DNA of 59,885 nt from Lachnospiraceae bacterium (GTDB lineage: Bacteria > Bacillota > Clostridia > Lachnospirales > Lachnospiraceae): NCBI GenBank assembly GCA_017392525.1, contig JAFOVD010000056.1:1-59885 (forward strand), in the 5' to 3' direction. Within the stretch, counting starts at the first letter, position 1. Each line of letters starts with the position of its first letter. The position numbers and the translations under genes were made by a program. Positions 52,929 to 59,885 of the stretch are shown here, piece after piece. The notes under the pieces are model-generated. The model did no database searches. It was not told where the DNA came from and saw only the letters and a list, made by a program, of their open reading frames with translations.

Positions 52929-54131
52929 TTACATGACATTTTGTAGTCGAAAAACCTCTTCTTTTGCATCCTCTAAGCCAAGATGGGTATACGTATTTAA
53001 CGTAACACCTATGTCACTGTGACCCATTAAATACTGCAAAGTCTTCGGATTCATTCCTGAACGAGCCATATTGGAGCAATAAGTATGCCTACAAACATGT
53101 GGAGTGACCTTTGGCATCTGTATTTTATAGATACCATTATACTTCTGTACAATATGTTTGAAATAATGCTCCCAATGAAGCGAATACATAATGCTTCCAT
53201 CTTTATCAAAATAAAGAAATCCGCTGTATCCATCTACCATAGGCTCCACCTTTGGCGGTTTACGGTTCGTCAAAATCTTACGAAAGCACGCTTCGACATC
53301 TTCTGTAATAGGAATCACTCTTGTTCCGCTGGTAGTCTTAGTTTGCTGTATATAATATCCATGGCTTCCTCGTTTAAGAAGCTGATGATTGATATTTACT
53401 GTATGATTCTCAAAATCAATATCCGATATTGTCAATCCACAGAATTCAGAAATACGCATTCCTGTTTTAAAGAGAATATAGATTCCTTCATAGTACTTGG
53501 AAAAATGCTTATCCTCTTTCACAAACTTAAGGAACTTTCGTTCCTGTTCTCTAGTAATGGCTTCTCTTCTTACTGAATCATTTACAATTACATCCACTAG
53601 CTGAAACCCAAATGGATTCTTACGAATCAAATCATCATCAACAGCCATCTGAAAAGCTGGTCTTACAACGCCTCGAATCGTGTGGATGCTACTGTATCCT
53701 CGACCACCTTCCTGCTGAAGTTTTATTAGCCATATTTTTGCATCTGATATACGAACTGTATCAATACGCTTTGAACCAAAAGGATCCTTTTTCAATAGGT
53801 TTAATACGGTATTATAGCCCGCCCTTGTAGTAGGTCTAACACCAGTCTTCGTAGCAACATATTTTTCAACCAAATCATATACCGTCAGGTTTCCACCATT
53901 AGAAACAATATGATCAAACATATCCGCCTGAATCTGTCTCTCTAATTCTCGAAGAGCCGGTCCCTTTTTCTTATTTACCGGAGTTTTGTCATTATGATCT
54001 AGTCTCCAACTATAAACTACTTTTTCCTTTCCGAACGTATCCAAATACTTAAAGCGATATCTTCCGTCGCTCATCTGCATTTCGCCATTATGTAGTAGTC
54101 TTCCTCTGCTATCTCTCCTTTTTTCACTCAT
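52929..54131 (-). CDS. Tn916-type tyrosine integrase
   Basis: A 400-residue integrase with an N-terminal arm-binding domain (SRGRLLHNGEMQMSDGRYRF), a SAM-like core-binding domain and a catalytic domain. Catalytic residues are visible: Arg in KTGMRISEFCG, Lys in QTKTTSGTR, HVCRHTY, His in GHSDIGVT and Tyr in LNTYTHLG. Length and domain order match Tn916 integrase. It lies at the element edge beside the phosphatase gene, with a separate small excisionase upstream. Confidence 0.94.
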   Translation of the reverse strand: MSEKRRDSRGRLLHNGEMQMSDGRYRFKYLDTFGKEKVVYSWRLDHNDKTPVNKKKGPALRELERQIQADMFDHIVSNGGNLTVYDLVEKYVATKTGVRPTTRAGYNTVLNLLKKDPFGSKRIDTVRISDAKIWLIKLQQEGGRGYSSIHTIRGVVRPAFQMAVDDDLIRKNPFGFQLVDVIVNDSVRREAITREQERKFLKFVKEDKHFSKYYEGIYILFKTGMRISEFCGLTISDIDFENHTVNINHQLLKRGSHGYYIQQTKTTSGTRVIPITEDVEACFRKILTNRKPPKVEPMVDGYSGFLYFDKDGSIMYSLHWEHYFKHIVQKYNGIYKIQMPKVTPHVCRHTYCSNMARSGMNPKTLQYLMGHSDIGVTLNTYTHLGLEDAKEEVFRLQNVM

Positions 54132-54242
54132 ATATTTGGTCTCCTTTAATCATCTTCTAAATAATAAGGATGACCATCTCGATGCTATTAATTTTATCAT
54201 GAGATGGTCATTCTGTCGCGGCATAATGAACATTTTTATCTG

Positions 54243-54455
54243 TTATATACCAGTCACGCTATCAAGATATTCTTCAAAAAGCTTTCTTTTAAATCTAATA
54301 TGTGTTCCAATCTCTAGGACAAAATCTTCTCCTTGATTCTCATAAGCAATCTGACGAAGTCTCTTTTCACCGATTCCATAGTATTCAGCAGCTTCCTGAA
54401 TACTAAGAGAATATTTTCGCCAGAGAGGAACATAACCATTTGATTTTACTTCCAT
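54243..54455 (-). CDS. xis: Tn916-type excisionase
   Basis: A 70-residue protein of the Xis-Tn916 type: WRKYSLSIQEAAEYYGIGEK with a winged-helix pattern and the ending RFKRKLFEEYLDSV. It bends DNA to favour excision by the integrase. Located just upstream of the integrase gene and two bases from the helicase-loader gene, so it is read within the same operon. Confidence 0.92.
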   Translation of the reverse strand: MEVKSNGYVPLWRKYSLSIQEAAEYYGIGEKRLRQIAYENQGEDFVLEIGTHIRFKRKLFEEYLDSVTGI

Positions 54456-54457
54456 GA

Positions 54458-55279
54458 TTATTCCTCCTTCTCAAATATTTCCTTAAGAATTTGATTCTTA
54501 TGCTTTCCAGATGCTACTCGTTTGCTTTCCACCGTTTCCATGTGAATCGGTCTACACATATCAAGAATTCTGTCTGAGATACGTGCAAACATAAGCTCCT
54601 GTTCATTCACATTCTTAAGACTCGACAACTCCAGATTCGTAGTGACGATAAGAGGCTTCCCTGAGTTCCATCTTCTGTTAATCACATTGCAGATATTCTG
54701 GAGAGCAAAGTCTGAATCCTGCTCTGCTCCTAAATCATCAATGATTAACAAAGCATAAGAATCAAGAGACCTCACATACTCTTCTGCATCAAACTTAGAG
54801 ATGTTCGAGATTCTGGCGAAGTCTGTCATCAGAACCTTCTTCTCCTGTTCCAACAAAGCATTGGCGATGCAAGCCGCCATATAGGTCTTTCCTGAGCCTA
54901 AATTGCCCCATAGCAAGAGTCCAATATGCTCAGCCCGAACCTTGTCCCAATTTTCTACATAACGCCTTGCCATTTGCATCTGAGGGACCGAACCATCATC
55001 ATTATCAAAAGTCCAATCCCACATTCTGCGGTCTGTAAAGCAAATACCTTTATTTCTCTCAACCAATTCTTTGTGCTCTCGGAGTTCATGAGCTTTACGT
55101 TCTCGAATGATCCGCTCCTCACGACATTTACATGTACTCGGCCTCTTATCAGATTTAAAAAACTTATTATATTCAGGAAGCCTTACCTCTAGTGGTCCAC
55201 CACATCGTGAACAATGAAGTAATCCATCCTCGGCTATATATGCATCTTCTACATTTCTTGTATTCCATAATTCATTCAT
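54458..55279 (-). CDS. DnaC/IstB-like helicase loader ATPase
   Basis: A 273-residue protein: N-terminal zinc-finger-like cysteines (CSRCGGPLE ... TCKCREE), then an AAA+ domain with Walker A LWGNLGSGKTYMA, Walker B LLIIDDLGAE and a sensor region (LIVTTNLELSSLK). DnaC-like proteins load replicative helicase; in mobile elements they help plasmid-like replication. Its start overlaps the stop of the replication-initiator gene. Confidence 0.9.
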   Translation of the reverse strand: MNELWNTRNVEDAYIAEDGLLHCSRCGGPLEVRLPEYNKFFKSDKRPSTCKCREERIIRERKAHELREHKELVERNKGICFTDRRMWDWTFDNDDGSVPQMQMARRYVENWDKVRAEHIGLLLWGNLGSGKTYMAACIANALLEQEKKVLMTDFARISNISKFDAEEYVRSLDSYALLIIDDLGAEQDSDFALQNICNVINRRWNSGKPLIVTTNLELSSLKNVNEQELMFARISDRILDMCRPIHMETVESKRVASGKHKNQILKEIFEKEE

Positions 55280-55764
55280 TAAAACGTGTCCTCCCCATAT
55301 ACATAAGATGTTATTTCCTCTTGTTTATTATTGTTATTAGTGGCAAGATTACCGCCCCATGAAGAGGTAGATTTCTTACCCTTGTATGGTCGATTTTCAG
55401 TACCTACTACAGTCGATTTTCCGACTATGCTAGTCTTTGGCACCTTTACATAAATCATATTGGCTCGCCCCTTTGTCATACGCTTCTTCTCAACTAATCC
55501 AGCTGCAACAAGCTCTTTCATATTTGCCTTTATAGTAGTGAGACTCTTACCCATTTCCTTCGCCAAATCCTCAAGCTTATAAAAGACATATACTCTTCCA
55601 TGCTCATCCACCTTTCCGGTGGAGATAGATAGATTCGAGCGATTCAAAAGCTTGGCATATAAAACCAACGCTGTGCTACTAAGCCCGATTCCATGCAAAT
55701 CATTTGGAATCACAGAATAATTAGTCAGTTTCGTATTCTTAGATAAAAAATGTAAGTCTTCCAC
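55279..55764 (-). CDS. Replication-initiator-like winged-helix protein (RepA N-terminal type)
   Basis: A 161-residue protein with YSVIPNDLHGIGLSSTALVLY near the start, then a winged helix (LEDLAKEMGKSLTTIKANMK) and a short polar C-terminus. Similar proteins accompany DnaC-like loaders in integrative elements and act in replication. It overlaps its neighbours by one base on both sides, so the three genes form one translational unit. Confidence 0.75.
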   Translation of the reverse strand: MEDLHFLSKNTKLTNYSVIPNDLHGIGLSSTALVLYAKLLNRSNLSISTGKVDEHGRVYVFYKLEDLAKEMGKSLTTIKANMKELVAAGLVEKKRMTKGRANMIYVKVPKTSIVGKSTVVGTENRPYKGKKSTSSWGGNLATNNNNKQEEITSYVYGEDTF

Positions 55765-56447
55765 TAGCTCTCACCTCCAAATCGCTTCTGCATTTCTTTG
55801 ATTTCATCTGATACGCGATAGATATCTGCTTCCATCTTTCGGTATTCCCGGATTGGGATTAGGTTTAATTTGATTTGGAAAAAGAGCCTGATGCGTTCAA
55901 GAATAGTTAATCCTTTCGCTTTATAATCTCTTTGCTCTAATCCCTGAAGTCTGGCATCACAATCTGCCGCTAAGCCCTCAACCTTTCCACTAATACCGAC
56001 TATCGTCTCCGCAGATTTTTTGCGAAGCTCCTGCTTCTCACTAAATAGCCTCATCTGCTGTTTCTCATTTAATTCCTTTAAATCGAAATACCGCTCCATC
56101 CATTCCTCTGTGTACTTCGACTGAGTGTGATAAATGTCAGCCCATTCTTTCATTTGGTCGCATCGATAATCGAAATCCGAAAAATGAATAACTGAATCAA
56201 TTAATACCTCTAGTTCATTCACTTTTTCAGGATCAATGGAATAACTCTTTCCATCACTGCTAATCTTTATCAAGCTGTCATTGGTATAGCGAAAGCTATT
56301 CATCTTTGCTCTTGCTGTTGATTCCGGTTTCTCACAATGCTCCATTAGAAATCTCTTTGCCGCATCGAAACTTCTCTCACCATTTCCAACAAACCTATAG
56401 AGGTCCCAGTGATTACCCAGATGCTTTATTGTCTCTTCTACATTCAT
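55764..56447 (-). CDS. Uncharacterised coiled-coil protein of the integrative element
   Basis: A 227-residue charged protein, mostly predicted helix. The middle (residues ~115-165) looks like coiled coil and there is one hydrophobic stretch (RIRLFFQIKLNLIPI) but no clear transmembrane helix. No motif is recognised. Its stop overlaps the start of the replication-initiator-like gene, so it is the first gene of that operon. Confidence 0.6.
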   Translation of the reverse strand: MNVEETIKHLGNHWDLYRFVGNGERSFDAAKRFLMEHCEKPESTARAKMNSFRYTNDSLIKISSDGKSYSIDPEKVNELEVLIDSVIHFSDFDYRCDQMKEWADIYHTQSKYTEEWMERYFDLKELNEKQQMRLFSEKQELRKKSAETIVGISGKVEGLAADCDARLQGLEQRDYKAKGLTILERIRLFFQIKLNLIPIREYRKMEADIYRVSDEIKEMQKRFGGES

Positions 56448-56985: not shown

Positions 56986-57447
56986 CTATACCGGCTCACC
57001 TATTGATGTCTCTTTTGTAAACCATTCTCCTAATGAATTCGCCCACCTCTCCGGATAAACCGAAAAATATGATAACTTTTCCATCTCACGCTTTTGAACA
57101 AAGATTGGCAGGAAACTCCATAATATAGACGGCACTCCTACCAAAAGCAAATACAATGGTCCAAAGAGCAATGACTGTATTGTGTGACCATACTCATGAA
57201 CCAATAGCATATTTGAGAATTCTTCCTCAGAATATGTTTCCCTGAATGAATCATAATAACAAAACGGATCGTCCGAAACAAAAACAAACATGCCCAATGA
57301 TAAGCTGGATTTACTTTTCCAAATAGTCACAACCGAGCCATGGTAATAGTAATGCTTCTGCTTTATATTTAGCAGATAATATACAAATCCTACTAATGTC
57401 TGTGGCAATCCCCAAGTCCACTGAATTGTGTCATAAATGATTCCCAT
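56986..57447 (-). CDS. Membrane protein with HEYGH zinc-peptidase-like motif
   Basis: A 153-residue protein with a helix near the N-terminus (QTLVGFVYYLLNI) and one near residue 110. Between them is LLVHEYGHTIQSLL, an HExxH-like zinc motif (HEYGH) typical of metallopeptidases. The start at 57447 is chosen for GGGGG upstream; a longer frame reaches 57594. Function unknown; a small peptidase or immunity factor is possible. Confidence 0.6.
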   Translation of the reverse strand: MGIIYDTIQWTWGLPQTLVGFVYYLLNIKQKHYYYHGSVVTIWKSKSSLSLGMFVFVSDDPFCYYDSFRETYSEEEFSNMLLVHEYGHTIQSLLFGPLYLLLVGVPSILWSFLPIFVQKREMEKLSYFSVYPERWANSLGEWFTKETSIGEPV

Positions 57448-57473
57448 ATTTCCCCCACAGTTATTATTCTTTG

Positions 57474-57501
57474 CACCTATGGTCATCGTGACCACAAGTG
57501 G
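57474..57501. repeat. Diverged copy of the CACTTGTGG hairpin
   Basis: CACCTATGGTCA (57474-57485) pairs with TGACCACAAGTG (57489-57500), resembling the terminator stem at 56690-56720; another related half-site lies near 59517. It lies right before the HEYGH gene start. Confidence 0.5.
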
Positions 57502-57592
57502 ATATACTGACACTATAATATATCCTAGCACATTTCTTAAATGAATCCCATCAATATAACACAACGCTCCACGTAAAATCAGCACTTGCAGC

Positions 57593-57668
57593 ATTTCGGC
57601 GCATCCGAAATCAACTGTTAACGGGTTATCCGAAATCAGATATCATCTCAATTCAGTATATCCGAAAT
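57593..57668. repeat. Repeated CCGAAAT motifs in the gap beside the IS110 element
   Basis: ATCCGAAAT occurs at 57603-57611, 57628-57636 and 57660-57668, and its reverse ATTTCGG at 57593-57599. The gap 57595-57790 otherwise holds nothing I recognise. Confidence 0.5.
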
Positions 57669-57800
57669 TCACGGCTCTTAAACGAACCTTCGCATGCTGA
57701 AAGCCTTGATAATAAAGGGGTTTGCTAATATCTTGCGACTTTACGAGGCCTCGTTCATAACTAGAACATTTCCCAAAAATAATGTAACAGTCTACAAATA

Positions 57801-57806
57801 AATCAA
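57801..57806 (-). promoter_or_regulatory. IS110 right-end -35 half of the junction promoter
   Basis: Minus-strand TTGATT. Joined at the CT core (57789-57790 with 59370-59371) the spacer to TATAAT at 59359-59364 is TATTTGTAGA, CT, GTCAC: exactly 17 bases. Confidence 0.75.
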
Positions 57807-57837
57807 CACTTATTTTTATGCATCCATTAGGGTATAC

Positions 57838-57863
57838 AAAAAAAGCCACCACTATGTGCCGGC
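57838..57863 (-). terminator. Terminator after the IS110 transposase
   Basis: Minus-strand GCCGGCAC, loop ATA, GTGGTGGC with one mismatch, followed by TTTTTTT. Confidence 0.7.
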
Positions 57864-57888
57864 TTGCTATATTCCTATAATCTATTAC

Positions 57889-59091
57889 TTACTCTTGTAT
57901 CGCTAAATACTCATTTACTTTGCCGTAGTAAACACGCAGAAACTTGTTTGCCGCTGCCGTCATATAAACAAAATACGGTTTTCCCTCTGCACGCTTTTTA
58001 CACATAAACTGATAAACAGAATCGTCCTCTGGCTTTGTCTTCAGAAGCACCTCCATGACTATATATAAAGTCCTTCTTAATTCAGCAGAACCTCTCTTTG
58101 TTGTACGCGTACTTTTTTGGTTATATGTACCTGATTGATTTACTCCAGGATCCACTCCGGCATACGCAATTAATGCGCCCTTATGTCTAAATCTACGAAC
58201 ATCTCCGATTTCAGCCATCAACTGTGGTCCTAATGATGTTCCAACCCCCTTCATGCTTAAAACCATTTCGTACTCTGGCAATGACATTGCCACCATATTC
58301 ATCTGGTTCCTATAGAATTCTAGAGTTTCTGAAATTGCATTAACCTGTTTTACCGCATTCTTCACAAGCATCTGCGTTGTATCATCCTTTGGCAAAGTAC
58401 ATACCAGTCCTTTTGCATATTCGTAAATCTTCTCTGCTTTTTTCTCAGATTTTCTGTATCCTTGCTTTTCACACCATCTAAAATACAGCGACACAAAGCC
58501 TTTTTTCGTCTTCTTGCGAACACAATCCGCGTGCCAGAAATCGTTTATGAAATCTACCCATTGTTGTTTTCCATCTACCTTTACAGGACTTGTAAATAAC
58601 GAATTAGCCCCTGGAAAAGTCTGATCTATCAAGCTAATCAAGTTGTTCCGTAAAGCGATTTTATTTTTTGTGTAAAAAACAAATTGTCTATGTATCTGTT
58701 TTAGTTGCATCCTTGCAGCATCCACCTTTGTAAACGGAATAAGTTCATTCCACCTATCAAGAGCATATCTCGCTATCTTTACTGAATCAGCCTTATCCGT
58801 TTTTACATTTCTAAGCGAGTTAATTTTAAAATCCTTTATTAGCTTGGGATTAACTGCTGTAACAAATAAACCTGCTCCTGCCAGTTTTAGTAAAATCTGT
58901 TCGTAATAATGCCCCGTATGTTCCAATACGATGCGTGTTTCACCCTCCAAACATTGAATAGTTCTTACTAATTCATCTAGATCACTCTCAGTGTGAGAAA
59001 CATCATATGGCGATATTACGCATTCTCCAAATGGTCGCAAAACCGCCACGGTGCTCTTACCTTTTGACACATCAATTCCAACCGCATTCAT
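57889..59091 (-). CDS. IS110-family transposase (DEDD / Tnp20 recombinase)
   Basis: A 400-residue bridge-RNA-guided recombinase by family. The RuvC-like N-terminal half has Asp7 (GIDVSKGKS), Glu in LEHTGHYY, NPKLIKDF and Asp in KTDKADSVKIA (DEDD set). The C-terminal Tnp20 part has the catalytic Ser region PGVNQSGTYNQKS. No frameshift is visible. The start at 59091 has GGAGAGGAG upstream. The gene is intact, so with the bridge RNA it may still move. Confidence 0.93.
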   Translation of the reverse strand: MNAVGIDVSKGKSTVAVLRPFGECVISPYDVSHTESDLDELVRTIQCLEGETRIVLEHTGHYYEQILLKLAGAGLFVTAVNPKLIKDFKINSLRNVKTDKADSVKIARYALDRWNELIPFTKVDAARMQLKQIHRQFVFYTKNKIALRNNLISLIDQTFPGANSLFTSPVKVDGKQQWVDFINDFWHADCVRKKTKKGFVSLYFRWCEKQGYRKSEKKAEKIYEYAKGLVCTLPKDDTTQMLVKNAVKQVNAISETLEFYRNQMNMVAMSLPEYEMVLSMKGVGTSLGPQLMAEIGDVRRFRHKGALIAYAGVDPGVNQSGTYNQKSTRTTKRGSAELRRTLYIVMEVLLKTKPEDDSVYQFMCKKRAEGKPYFVYMTAAANKFLRVYYGKVNEYLAIQE

Positions 59092-59146
59092 TGCATTTTC
59101 TCCTCTCCTTTAAGAATATTGCAATAGCAATACCAGTTTTCTCATT

Positions 59147-59354
59147 GCATATTCAATCTGTCTGATTACACGAACGCACATTTTCTGCGGCTCTACCTAC
59201 ATAAAACGAATATTGCGAATAAGGAGCTGGTTATCTGACTGTTATAAGGACGCGAAGTCCAAGGATACGCTCGATAGCCATTGCTCTCTTATTCTACAAT
59301 TAAGCAATAAGATGGATAAAGTCGCAGCTGGCTTGCGGCGATACTTTATCCATC
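59147..59354 (-). ncRNA. Predicted IS110 bridge RNA
   Basis: About 208 bases, upstream of the transposase, in three folds. The 5' hairpin: GATGGATAAAGT with ACTTTATCCATC (59311-59354). Target-binding loop: stem AATAAG/CTTATT, GAGC/GCTC, TGG/CCA, TATC/GATA (59218-59293) around GCGTATCCT (59262-59270), a small hairpin GGAC/GTCC, and TAACAG (59239-59244). Donor loop: GCAATATTC/GAATATGC (about 59147-59216) with TATGTAGGT (59195-59203) and GACAG (59158-59162). The target guides equal the bases next to the left end (59370-59378) and complement those next to the right end (57785-57790). Transcription needs the circular junction promoter. Confidence 0.8.
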
Positions 59355-59358
59355 TATT

Positions 59359-59364
59359 ATTATA
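59359..59364 (-). promoter_or_regulatory. IS110 left-end -10 half of the junction promoter
   Basis: Minus-strand TATAAT just before the bridge RNA; in the linear insertion no -35 lies at 17 bases, so the promoter should be weak until the ends are joined. Confidence 0.75.
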
Positions 59365-59474
59365 GTGACAGGATACGCATATAGTTACACAATTCCTTTA
59401 TGCAAAAATCCGTGCTCCTATGTCGCCCGATCCGACTTCGTCAGAAAGTAAACTCGTACTGCGTATCCTTATGT

Positions 59475-59499
59475 ACTTTTACTCCAGTGGAGTAAAAGT
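59475..59499. repeat. Perfect 11-base hairpin between IS110 and the restriction gene
   Basis: ACTTTTACTCC (59475-59485), loop AGT, GGAGTAAAAGT (59489-59499). No T run follows on the minus strand. The gap 59372-59563 otherwise holds the insertion flank and no gene. Confidence 0.6.
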
Positions 59500-59563
59500 T
59501 ACTCAAAAAATGTCTCATATCCACTTGTGGTCCGACTAGAAGTTAATAATCACATCTATCAAA

Positions 59564-59885
59564 TCAAACCTCTAAATTACTCAAAGCATCCTTAATAACT
59601 CTTTCTGCTTTATAAATTGAATCTGTTGATTTTTTTAATTTTTCTCCTAACTTTTCCAATTCCTTATCATCAGAAGTCATAGAAATTTGTATATTTGCAA
59701 GTTGCTCTGTTTTGATTCGATTATGAGACGATGAAGTTCCAGATGTCAAATTGACAATCTGGTTTTGAACAATATCAGTGCGCAAAATATGACATAGCAC
59801 ATACGGATTCAAGCCATTTTTGGGTCTAATAATCTCAAATTCATTGGAGCATACCAAGCCATATTGCTTTGGGGGTATTACAGCC
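59564..59885 (-). CDS. Type I restriction enzyme specificity subunit-like protein, partial
   Basis: The frame is open to the last base of the window, so only the C-terminal ~106 residues are seen. The segment PPKQYGLVCSNEFEIIRP followed by HNRIKTEQLANIQISM and a helical end (EKLGEKLKKSTDSIYKAERV) is the layout of one half of a type I HsdS specificity subunit: target-recognition domain and conserved helix. It would give DNA specificity to a methylase and nuclease encoded further right. Whether the rest is intact cannot be judged. Confidence 0.7.
   Translation of the reverse strand, partial: AVIPPKQYGLVCSNEFEIIRPKNGLNPYVLCHILRTDIVQNQIVNLTSGTSSSHNRIKTEQLANIQISMTSDDKELEKLGEKLKKSTDSIYKAERVIKDALSNLEV

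What the first reader, a model, noticed from the sequence alone, without database searches (positions are those of the whole stretch)
59218..59293. Target loop of the bridge RNA matches both flanks of this very insertion
The predicted target-binding loop carries GCGTATCCT (59262-59270), identical to the nine bases at the left boundary (59370-59378), and TAACAG (59239-59244), the complement of CTGTTA at the right boundary (57785-57790). Both include the CT core and have the left-guide, right-guide order with the polarity described for IS621. The loop is closed by a long stem with two small bulges and has a GGAC/GTCC hairpin between guides. Fifteen bases matching at the predicted places is hard to explain by chance.
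Basis: partly seen in the sequence, partly recalled or inferred. Interest (0 to 1): 0.9.

Follow-up and report, generated by a model that had tools for sequence, protein, structure and literature searches.

The report
RNA-guided jumping gene matches its site
A small bacterial jumping gene carries an RNA whose guide letters match the place where the gene sits, and related copies with other guides mostly sit at correspondingly different places, so this is a good new natural example of a recently discovered RNA-guided insertion system.

Summary
The element (window 59369-57791, minus strand) is an IS110-family insertion sequence with a DEDD/serine recombinase and a predicted bridge RNA in its left end. 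The left guide GCGTATCCT equals the left flank (9/9); the right guide TAACAG complements CTGTTA on the right. Both share the CT core, and the donor loop fits the element's own ends.

This exceeds chance. In 27 of 35 aligned loci (8 dropped) guides fit their own flanks better than each other's; 0 of 100,000 permutations reach this. The RNA fold is supported by covariation.

Uninterrupted copies of the 13-base target exist: 21 places in 14 of 397 family genomes, one in the same genus with 62 bp of 95%-identical left flank. They look like a dispersed hairpin repeat, some near integrative-element or anti-phage genes. The nearest relative (72%) has the same left guide and target.

Most other relatives carry guides resembling the anti-Shine-Dalgarno sequence; 20 of 30 insertions examined lie just upstream of a start codon, against 370 of 1,789 background sites. 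IS900 is a precedent.

Verdict: new member of a known kind; no RNA or transposition evidence.

The parts
57791..59369 (-). IS110-family insertion sequence (1,579 bp between the two CT cores); one copy in the held genome
   Evidence: ends placed by comparison with relatives; one match in own genome
57889..59091 (-). DEDD/serine recombinase (transposase), 400 aa; D7, E57, D99, D102 and S320 align with IS621 D11, E60, D102, D105, S241
   Evidence: PF01548 and PF02371; invariant in 14 of 14 aligned members; alignment to IS621 chain 8wt6_A, whose numbering there runs two higher than the paper's; residue roles from passages of PMC11208158
59145..59307 (-). [quoted passage not shown]
   Evidence: covariance model R1, 140 bits; covariation
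59311..59354 (-). 5' stem-loop of the predicted RNA
   Evidence: fold; corresponding region in the left-end alignment
59218..59293 (-). target-binding loop with closing stem
   Evidence: fold; helices 1-4
59262..59270 (-). left target guide GCGTATCCT
   Evidence: 9/9 to left flank
59248..59260 (-). GGAC/GTCC hairpin between the guides
   Evidence: helix 4: 99.1% of cells paired, two of four pairs with changes on both sides
59239..59244 (-). right target guide TAACAG
   Evidence: 6/7 to right flank
59196..59203 (-). left donor guide TATGTAGG, shares TGTAG with the element's right end TTTGTAGA
   Evidence: in window and L029 both donor and guide carry T where the other members have C
59158..59162 (-). 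right donor guide GACAG, complement of CTGTC at the left end
   Evidence: L029 has GGCAG with CTGCC
59370..59378 (-). left target flank including core CT (59371-59370)
57785..57790 (-). right target flank including core CT (57790-57789)
57801..57806 (-). TTGATT, -35-like half of a promoter that would form only in the excised circle
   Evidence: 17-bp spacing to TATAAT across the joined ends
59359..59364 (-). TATAAT, -10-like half of the circle-junction promoter
59368..59429 (-). left part of the interrupted target repeat; 95% identical over 62 bp to an uninterrupted copy in the same genus
52929..56447 (-). core of an integrative element beside the IS: 227-aa gene without Pfam match, RepA_N-type protein, DnaC/IstB-like ATPase, Tn916-type integrase
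   Evidence: Pfam. Beside L029's IS: a 232-aa gene (no blastp match to the 227-aa one), a Rep-like (36%) and a DnaC-like protein (47%) in the same order; an integrase beside L029 was not established

Best explanation
This is an IS110-group insertion sequence that uses a bridge RNA to choose its site. Inferred mechanism, by homology to IS621: the element excises as a circle; the joined ends form a promoter (TTGATT-17 bp-TATAAT) that drives the left-end RNA; the RNA's donor loop pairs with the circle junction and its target loop pairs with GCGTATC-CT-GTTA; the DEDD/serine recombinase exchanges strands at the CT core. Shown here by sequence: guides and matching flanks, uninterrupted targets elsewhere, covariation of the RNA fold, conserved catalytic residues, guide-target concordance across relatives. 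Not shown: transcription, RNA binding, transposition. The target of this branch looks like a dispersed hairpin repeat, some copies of which lie in or near integrative elements and anti-phage genes; that this lets the IS ride on mobile DNA is inference.
For: Guides and flanks fit 9/9 and 6/7. Own pairing beats swapped pairing in the 27 of 35 loci used (left 141 of 189 non-core bases, right 109 of 135; highest of 100,000 permutations 125 and 84). Five loci not used to build the model (5 of the 9 hits): left guide 8, 8, 8, 8, 6 of 9; right guide 7, 6, 2, 6 of 7, one right end not found (boundaries placed by hand-set motifs). Uninterrupted target in 21 places of 14 of 397 genomes, one in the same genus with 62 bp of 95%-identical left flank. 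L029 has the same left guide and the same target. Fold: 97.5% of cells paired against 30-45% for slid partners; 12 of 29 pairs with changes on both sides; four of five measures reached by 0 of 500 shuffles, the fifth by 8 of 500. Circle-junction promoter spacing 17 bp in 28 of 31 elements. Catalytic residues conserved with IS621.
Against: No expression data. No Rfam match. One copy in an incomplete assembly, and no uninterrupted target elsewhere in the own genome by the pattern. Fits are imperfect: left guide 5 of 9 or fewer (core included) in 6 of 28 distinct rows (L050, L046, L048, L062, L008, L010); right guide 2 of 7 in L006 and L200. In one search L006 fits the guide of its near relative L053 better (4 of 9) than its own (2). 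The model found no RNA in 3 of 19 loci, L012 and L032 (left end largely missing) and L013. The window and L029 may share one ancestral insertion. Related sequences make the permutation test no strict probability, and the fold was derived from the same sequences on which it was counted.
Confidence: 0.94

Rival explanations
1. The match is a by-product of repeat structure: GCGTATCCT is part of a local repeat that happens to occur in the left end too, without any guide function.
For: GCGTATCCT also occurs on the other strand at 59461-59469.
Against: The right guide fits the other flank independently; the guide lies at the aligned guide position of a conserved RNA; relatives with other guides fit their own flanks.
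Confidence: 0.02
2. The element inserts by protein recognition of DNA, and the RNA region is a regulatory leader; guide-flank similarity arises because left-end sequence was copied from a former target.
For: Transposition and RNA binding were not tested here.
Against: L005 and L052, 97.7% identical over 1,607 bp, differ in the right guide and each fits its own flank better (6 and 7 of 9 against 4 and 5); L024 and L028, in one genome and 91.5% identical, 8 and 7 against 4 and 4 (picked from 25 listed pairs, others share guides or show no difference). Donor guides follow the element's ends too. RNA guidance was shown experimentally for IS621 and ISEc11 (passages of PMC11208160 and PMC11187229).
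Confidence: 0.03
3. The window and L029 descend from one ancestral insertion carried by one integrative-element lineage, so they give one data point on targeting, not two.
For: Rep-like and DnaC-like genes in the same order beside both (36% and 47% identical); left flanks share AACTAT..GCGTATCCT.
Against: Beyond about 20 bp the flanks differ. This rival does not touch the main claim, which also rests on empty sites and other relatives.
Confidence: 0.4

Closest known systems
IS621 (IS110 group, Escherichia coli), bridge RNA
   Same: left-end RNA with target then donor loop; left guide pairs with the bottom strand, right guide with the top strand; CT core in both; PF01548+PF02371 recombinase with DEDD and serine; promoter across the circle junction (PMC11208160: outline, passages and section 5 seen; PMC11208158: passages)
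   Different: recombinase only distantly similar (profile E 2.3e-25); right target guide here fits 6 of the first 7 bases, IS621's predicted pairing is 4 bp, with longer ones noted in some orthologues; different target
ISCro4 (IS110 group)
   Same: second solved IS110 recombinase found by the family profile (E 4e-25)
   Different: sequence-distant; its bridge RNA was not compared here
ISKpn4, ISPst6 (attC sites), ISPa11 (REP), IS4321/IS5075 (Tn21-family ends), IS1111 group
   Same: target conserved, multi-copy sites, some foldable, on mobile or repeated DNA (PMC11187229: passages and a reference title seen)
   Different: IS1111 group carries its RNA downstream of the transposase; this element has it in the left end; the repeat here is a different sequence
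IS900 (IS110 family, Mycobacterium avium subsp. paratuberculosis)
   Same: published target motif CATGNNNNNNTCTCCTT (PMC8141618, passages) has the geometry of the sites of the window's relatives; a 1997 paper in its reference list is titled as targeting translation initiation signals (title only seen)
   Different: different hosts; the window's own element does not use such a site; IS900's guides were not examined here

Membership tests
[quoted passage not shown]
IS110 family (IS110 group) | long left non-coding end, short right end (IS110 group rather than IS1111) | tested here: met
   left end 278 bp, right end 98 bp between the cores and the coding sequence (coordinates)
Bridge RNA system | left-end structured RNA with two guide-bearing loops, target loop first | tested here: met
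Bridge RNA system | left guide identical to the left target strand, right guide complementary to the right target, both including the core | tested here: met
   9/9 and 6/7 in the window element; concordance in relatives with exceptions
Bridge RNA system | donor guides matching the element's own ends | tested here: met
   window GACAG/CTGTC and TATGTAGG/TTTGTAGA; first five right-donor bases fit in 30 of 31 elements by my reading of the table (L010 4 of 5); no shuffle test was run
Bridge RNA system | promoter reconstituted across the circle junction | tested here: met
   TTGATT-17-TATAAT; best spacing 17 bp in 28 of 31 elements, 15 bp in 3; promoter activity not tested
Bridge RNA system | RNA is transcribed, bound by the recombinase, and directs insertion | not testable with these tools
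   needs RNA sequencing and a transposition assay
Rfam families | match to a curated RNA family | tested here: not met
   one unrelated sub-threshold match (mir-251, outside the element) at E up to 1 in window 57000-59885

The most novel reading that the evidence does not exclude
The IS110 clade to which this element belongs mostly programs its bridge RNA with an anti-Shine-Dalgarno-like guide, a near-universal bacterial address just upstream of genes, and the window's branch has been re-programmed to a hairpin repeat that marks junctions of exchangeable anti-phage cargo in integrative elements. That repeat could itself be a recombination site of an undescribed cargo-exchange system, as attC is for integrons.
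Probability: 0.15. Interest if true: 0.75.

Novelty: new member of a known kind. Interest (0 to 1): 0.47.

Why it matters
It gives a natural test of bridge-RNA targeting outside the characterised elements: an uninterrupted target in the same genus, relatives with different guides at different matching sites, and a few near-identical elements whose right guides differ with their sites. The left guides of many relatives resemble the anti-Shine-Dalgarno sequence, which would explain at guide level why some IS110 elements land beside translation starts (published for IS900 at the level of the target). It also points to a family of gut-bacterial recombinases with short guides and readable natural targets.

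Tried and rejected
Rfam search of the window end and of 9 loci with the repeat or L029: no bridge RNA and no name for the repeat; one group II intron in L073, away from the site. IMG/VR contigs: no relative by peptide patterns, which reach close relatives only; the phage collection did hold 6 records with a relative and the plasmid collection 3, of which I fetched 5 of 9. The 14-base loop pattern gave 96 exact matches in viral contigs, not followed because I judged it the chance range; the 19-base target gave 2, not followed. Pattern search for the same loop in 295 genomes of the order: 35 genomes with a match, two places exact (the window and G141), the rest at one mismatch; none was followed. 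First guide finders misplaced boundaries and were replaced. I considered the target repeat as an integron attC site: by eye it lacks the recalled end motifs; not tested formally. A model for the repeat was not built because its loop lengths vary and the arms align poorly. IS900 was at first a recalled precedent; searches support it.

Rows dropped before the permutation test (8 of 35): L047 (right flank cut by the contig end), L009, L058, L060 (left end not found by the pattern at that stage), L011 and L061 (same flanks as L024), L033 and L025 (boundaries unclear). Rows left out of the start-codon test (5 of 35): L011, L061, L033, L025, and L050 (short flank). Of the recombinase matches found, those below 48% identity, partial ones, duplicates of one place, and L012, L013, L032 were left out of the alignment.

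Full report
What is there. The window's right end holds a complete insertion sequence on the minus strand, 59369 to 57791, with CT at each edge. Its 400-aa protein matches PF01548 and PF02371, and a family profile finds IS621 and ISCro4 among solved structures. Aligned with IS621, window residues D7, E57, D99, D102 and S320 take the places of D11, E60, D102, D105 and S241 (the chain is numbered two higher), which are needed for IS621 recombination (passages of PMC11208158); all five are invariant in 14 of 14 aligned members. The element occurs once in the held genome, which is 78.6% complete.

The observation. The letters and coordinates of the finding are right. The left guide equals the left flank at 9 of 9 bases; the right guide fits the right flank at 6 of 7. 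Because the CT core is in both, the guides specify a 13-base target, not fifteen independent bases. The donor loop, which the finding did not use, also fits: GACAG at 59162-59158 complements CTGTC at the left end, and TATGTAGG at 59203-59196 shares TGTAG with the right end.

Is the RNA plausible? No Rfam family matches. Left ends of 29 related elements align and share a fold: the target stem-loop, a hairpin between the guides and a short donor-side helix. Of 829 base-pair cells 97.5% pair, against 30-45% when partners are slid by 1-3 columns; 12 of 29 pairs show changes on both sides; four of five measures were reached by 0 of 500 shuffles and the fifth by 8 of 500. The structure was derived from these same sequences, which favours it. 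A covariance model gives 140 bits in the window (training sequence). On 19 further loci it found 16, among them 5 of 5 plasmid or phage loci at 112-149 bits; it missed L012 and L032, whose left ends are largely missing, and L013.

Do guides follow sites? Of 35 aligned loci I used 27 (reasons for dropping 8 are under Tried and rejected). Own guides fit own flanks at 141 of 189 non-core left bases and 109 of 135 non-core right bases; the best of 100,000 permutations gave 125 and 84. Relatedness means this is no strict probability. With the core included, the left guide fits 9 of 9 in 8 of 28 distinct rows and 5 of 9 or fewer in 6 (L050, L046, L048, L062, L008, L010); the right guide fits only 2 of 7 in L006. 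In five loci outside the model, with boundaries set by hand, the left guide fits 8, 8, 8, 8 and 6 of 9 and the right guide 7, 6, 2 and 6 of 7, one right end not found. Among 25 near-identical pairs listed, some are telling: L005 and L052, 97.7% identical, fit their own right flank at 6 and 7 of 9 and the other's at 4 and 5; L024 and L028, in one genome, 8 and 7 against 4 and 4. Others share a guide (L003 and L023, in one genome at two sites) or show no advantage, and L006 fits L053's guide better than its own.

Empty sites. Searching 397 family genomes, drawn from a larger group, for the target with its left context at up to two mismatches gave 36 places in 29 genomes (one is the window), against 12 places for the reversed control. 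By my count 21 places in 14 genomes carry GCGTATCCTGTTA intact. One, in the same genus (L073/L087), shares 62 bp at 95% identity with the window's left flank. It lies about 7 kb from a Tn916-type integrase gene next to the same phosphatase-like gene as in the window, and between two stretches similar to the window's integrase-end region, so probably inside a diverged relative of the window's integrative element. I aligned 17 copies: the GCGTATCCTG block is invariant, and in several copies, by eye and by single-sequence folding, it follows a hairpin whose arms differ but still pair; other copies lack this. Some copies lie near genes like those of the window's integrative element (by eye), and three loci of one genome, G106, lie near anti-phage genes: 9 of 10 proteins scanned matched PADLOC models, including AbiE, AbiL and a UG24 reverse transcriptase. 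Copies in G460 (L084) showed no such genes by eye. What the repeat is remains open.

The nearest relative. L029 (Agathobacter sp. MAG, goat colon; 72% identical protein) has the same left guide, a right guide fitting 5 of 7, and the same 13-base target. A Rep-like and a DnaC-like gene follow in the same order as in the window (36% and 47% identical); the gene before them has no blastp match to the window's 227-aa protein. An integrase beside L029 was not established. One shared ancestral insertion is possible.

Relatives and ribosome-binding sites. Leaving out the window, L029, two duplicates and two outliers, 24 of 29 aligned left guides contain CTCC or CCTTTC by my count on the table, like the anti-Shine-Dalgarno sequence. 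Of 30 insertions examined, 20 have ATG, GTG or TTG 8-20 bases beyond the core with an open frame of at least 50 codons reading away, against 370 of 1,789 CT sites in the same flanks. The window element and L029 are among the ten without. The background does not control for composition. In such sites the ribosome-binding site stays with its gene. IS900 has the published motif CATGNNNNNNTCTCCTT (PMC8141618, passages), so the target preference is not new. No paper held IS110, bridge RNA and Shine-Dalgarno together, and IS110 with 'translation initiation signals' gave only the IS900 paper; that covers only the open-access library searched.

Circle promoter. Joining right and left ends in a script gives TTGATT-17 bp-TATAAT for the window element. 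The best spacing is 17 bp in 28 of 31 elements and 15 bp in 3. In the window and L029 the core lies 10 bases after the -35-like box, in the other 29 it lies 13 bases after it. IS621's RNA is expressed from such a promoter (PMC11208160, section 5). Activity here is inferred.

Verdict. The finding is correct and its interpretation is well supported by comparison. It is a new member of a known kind. The anti-Shine-Dalgarno-like guides of its clade and the repeat targeted by its own branch are the parts worth following.

Noticed in passing
L073:1447-1522, L083, L084, L085, L086 and window 59368-59469: A dispersed, often hairpin-forming repeat ending in GCGTATCCTGTTA in genomes of the window's family (probably Lachnospiraceae, recalled), some copies near integrative-element or anti-phage genes, four places each in G106 and G460. 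Identity unknown; no Rfam match.
   Followed up: partly
relatives L003, L023, L005, L052, L055, L056, L060 and others: Left guides of related bridge RNAs resemble the anti-Shine-Dalgarno sequence and many elements sit just upstream of translation starts (20 of 30 examined).
   Followed up: yes
L005/L052, L024/L028, L009/L058: Nearly identical elements carry different right guides, each fitting its own site; how guides change between insertions is open.
   Followed up: partly
window 57801-57806 and 59359-59364: In the window element and L029 the core lies 3 bp closer to the -35-like box than in the other 29 elements, with the 17-bp promoter spacing kept.
   Followed up: partly
window 59564-59884 (-): Open frame running off the contig end that looks by eye like the C-terminal part of a type I restriction specificity subunit (recalled resemblance; no Pfam match at E up to 1).
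   Followed up: partly
L073:256-447: Group II intron (RF02001, E 5.5e-24) about 1 kb from an uninterrupted target copy in the same genus.
   Followed up: no
L087:5680-5956: A 277-bp stretch 87% similar to the window's integrase-end region lies at the far side of the same-genus integrative element, like an attachment-site duplication.
   Followed up: no
L033 and L025: Two more distant relatives appear to use a TT rather than CT core, by eye.
   Followed up: no
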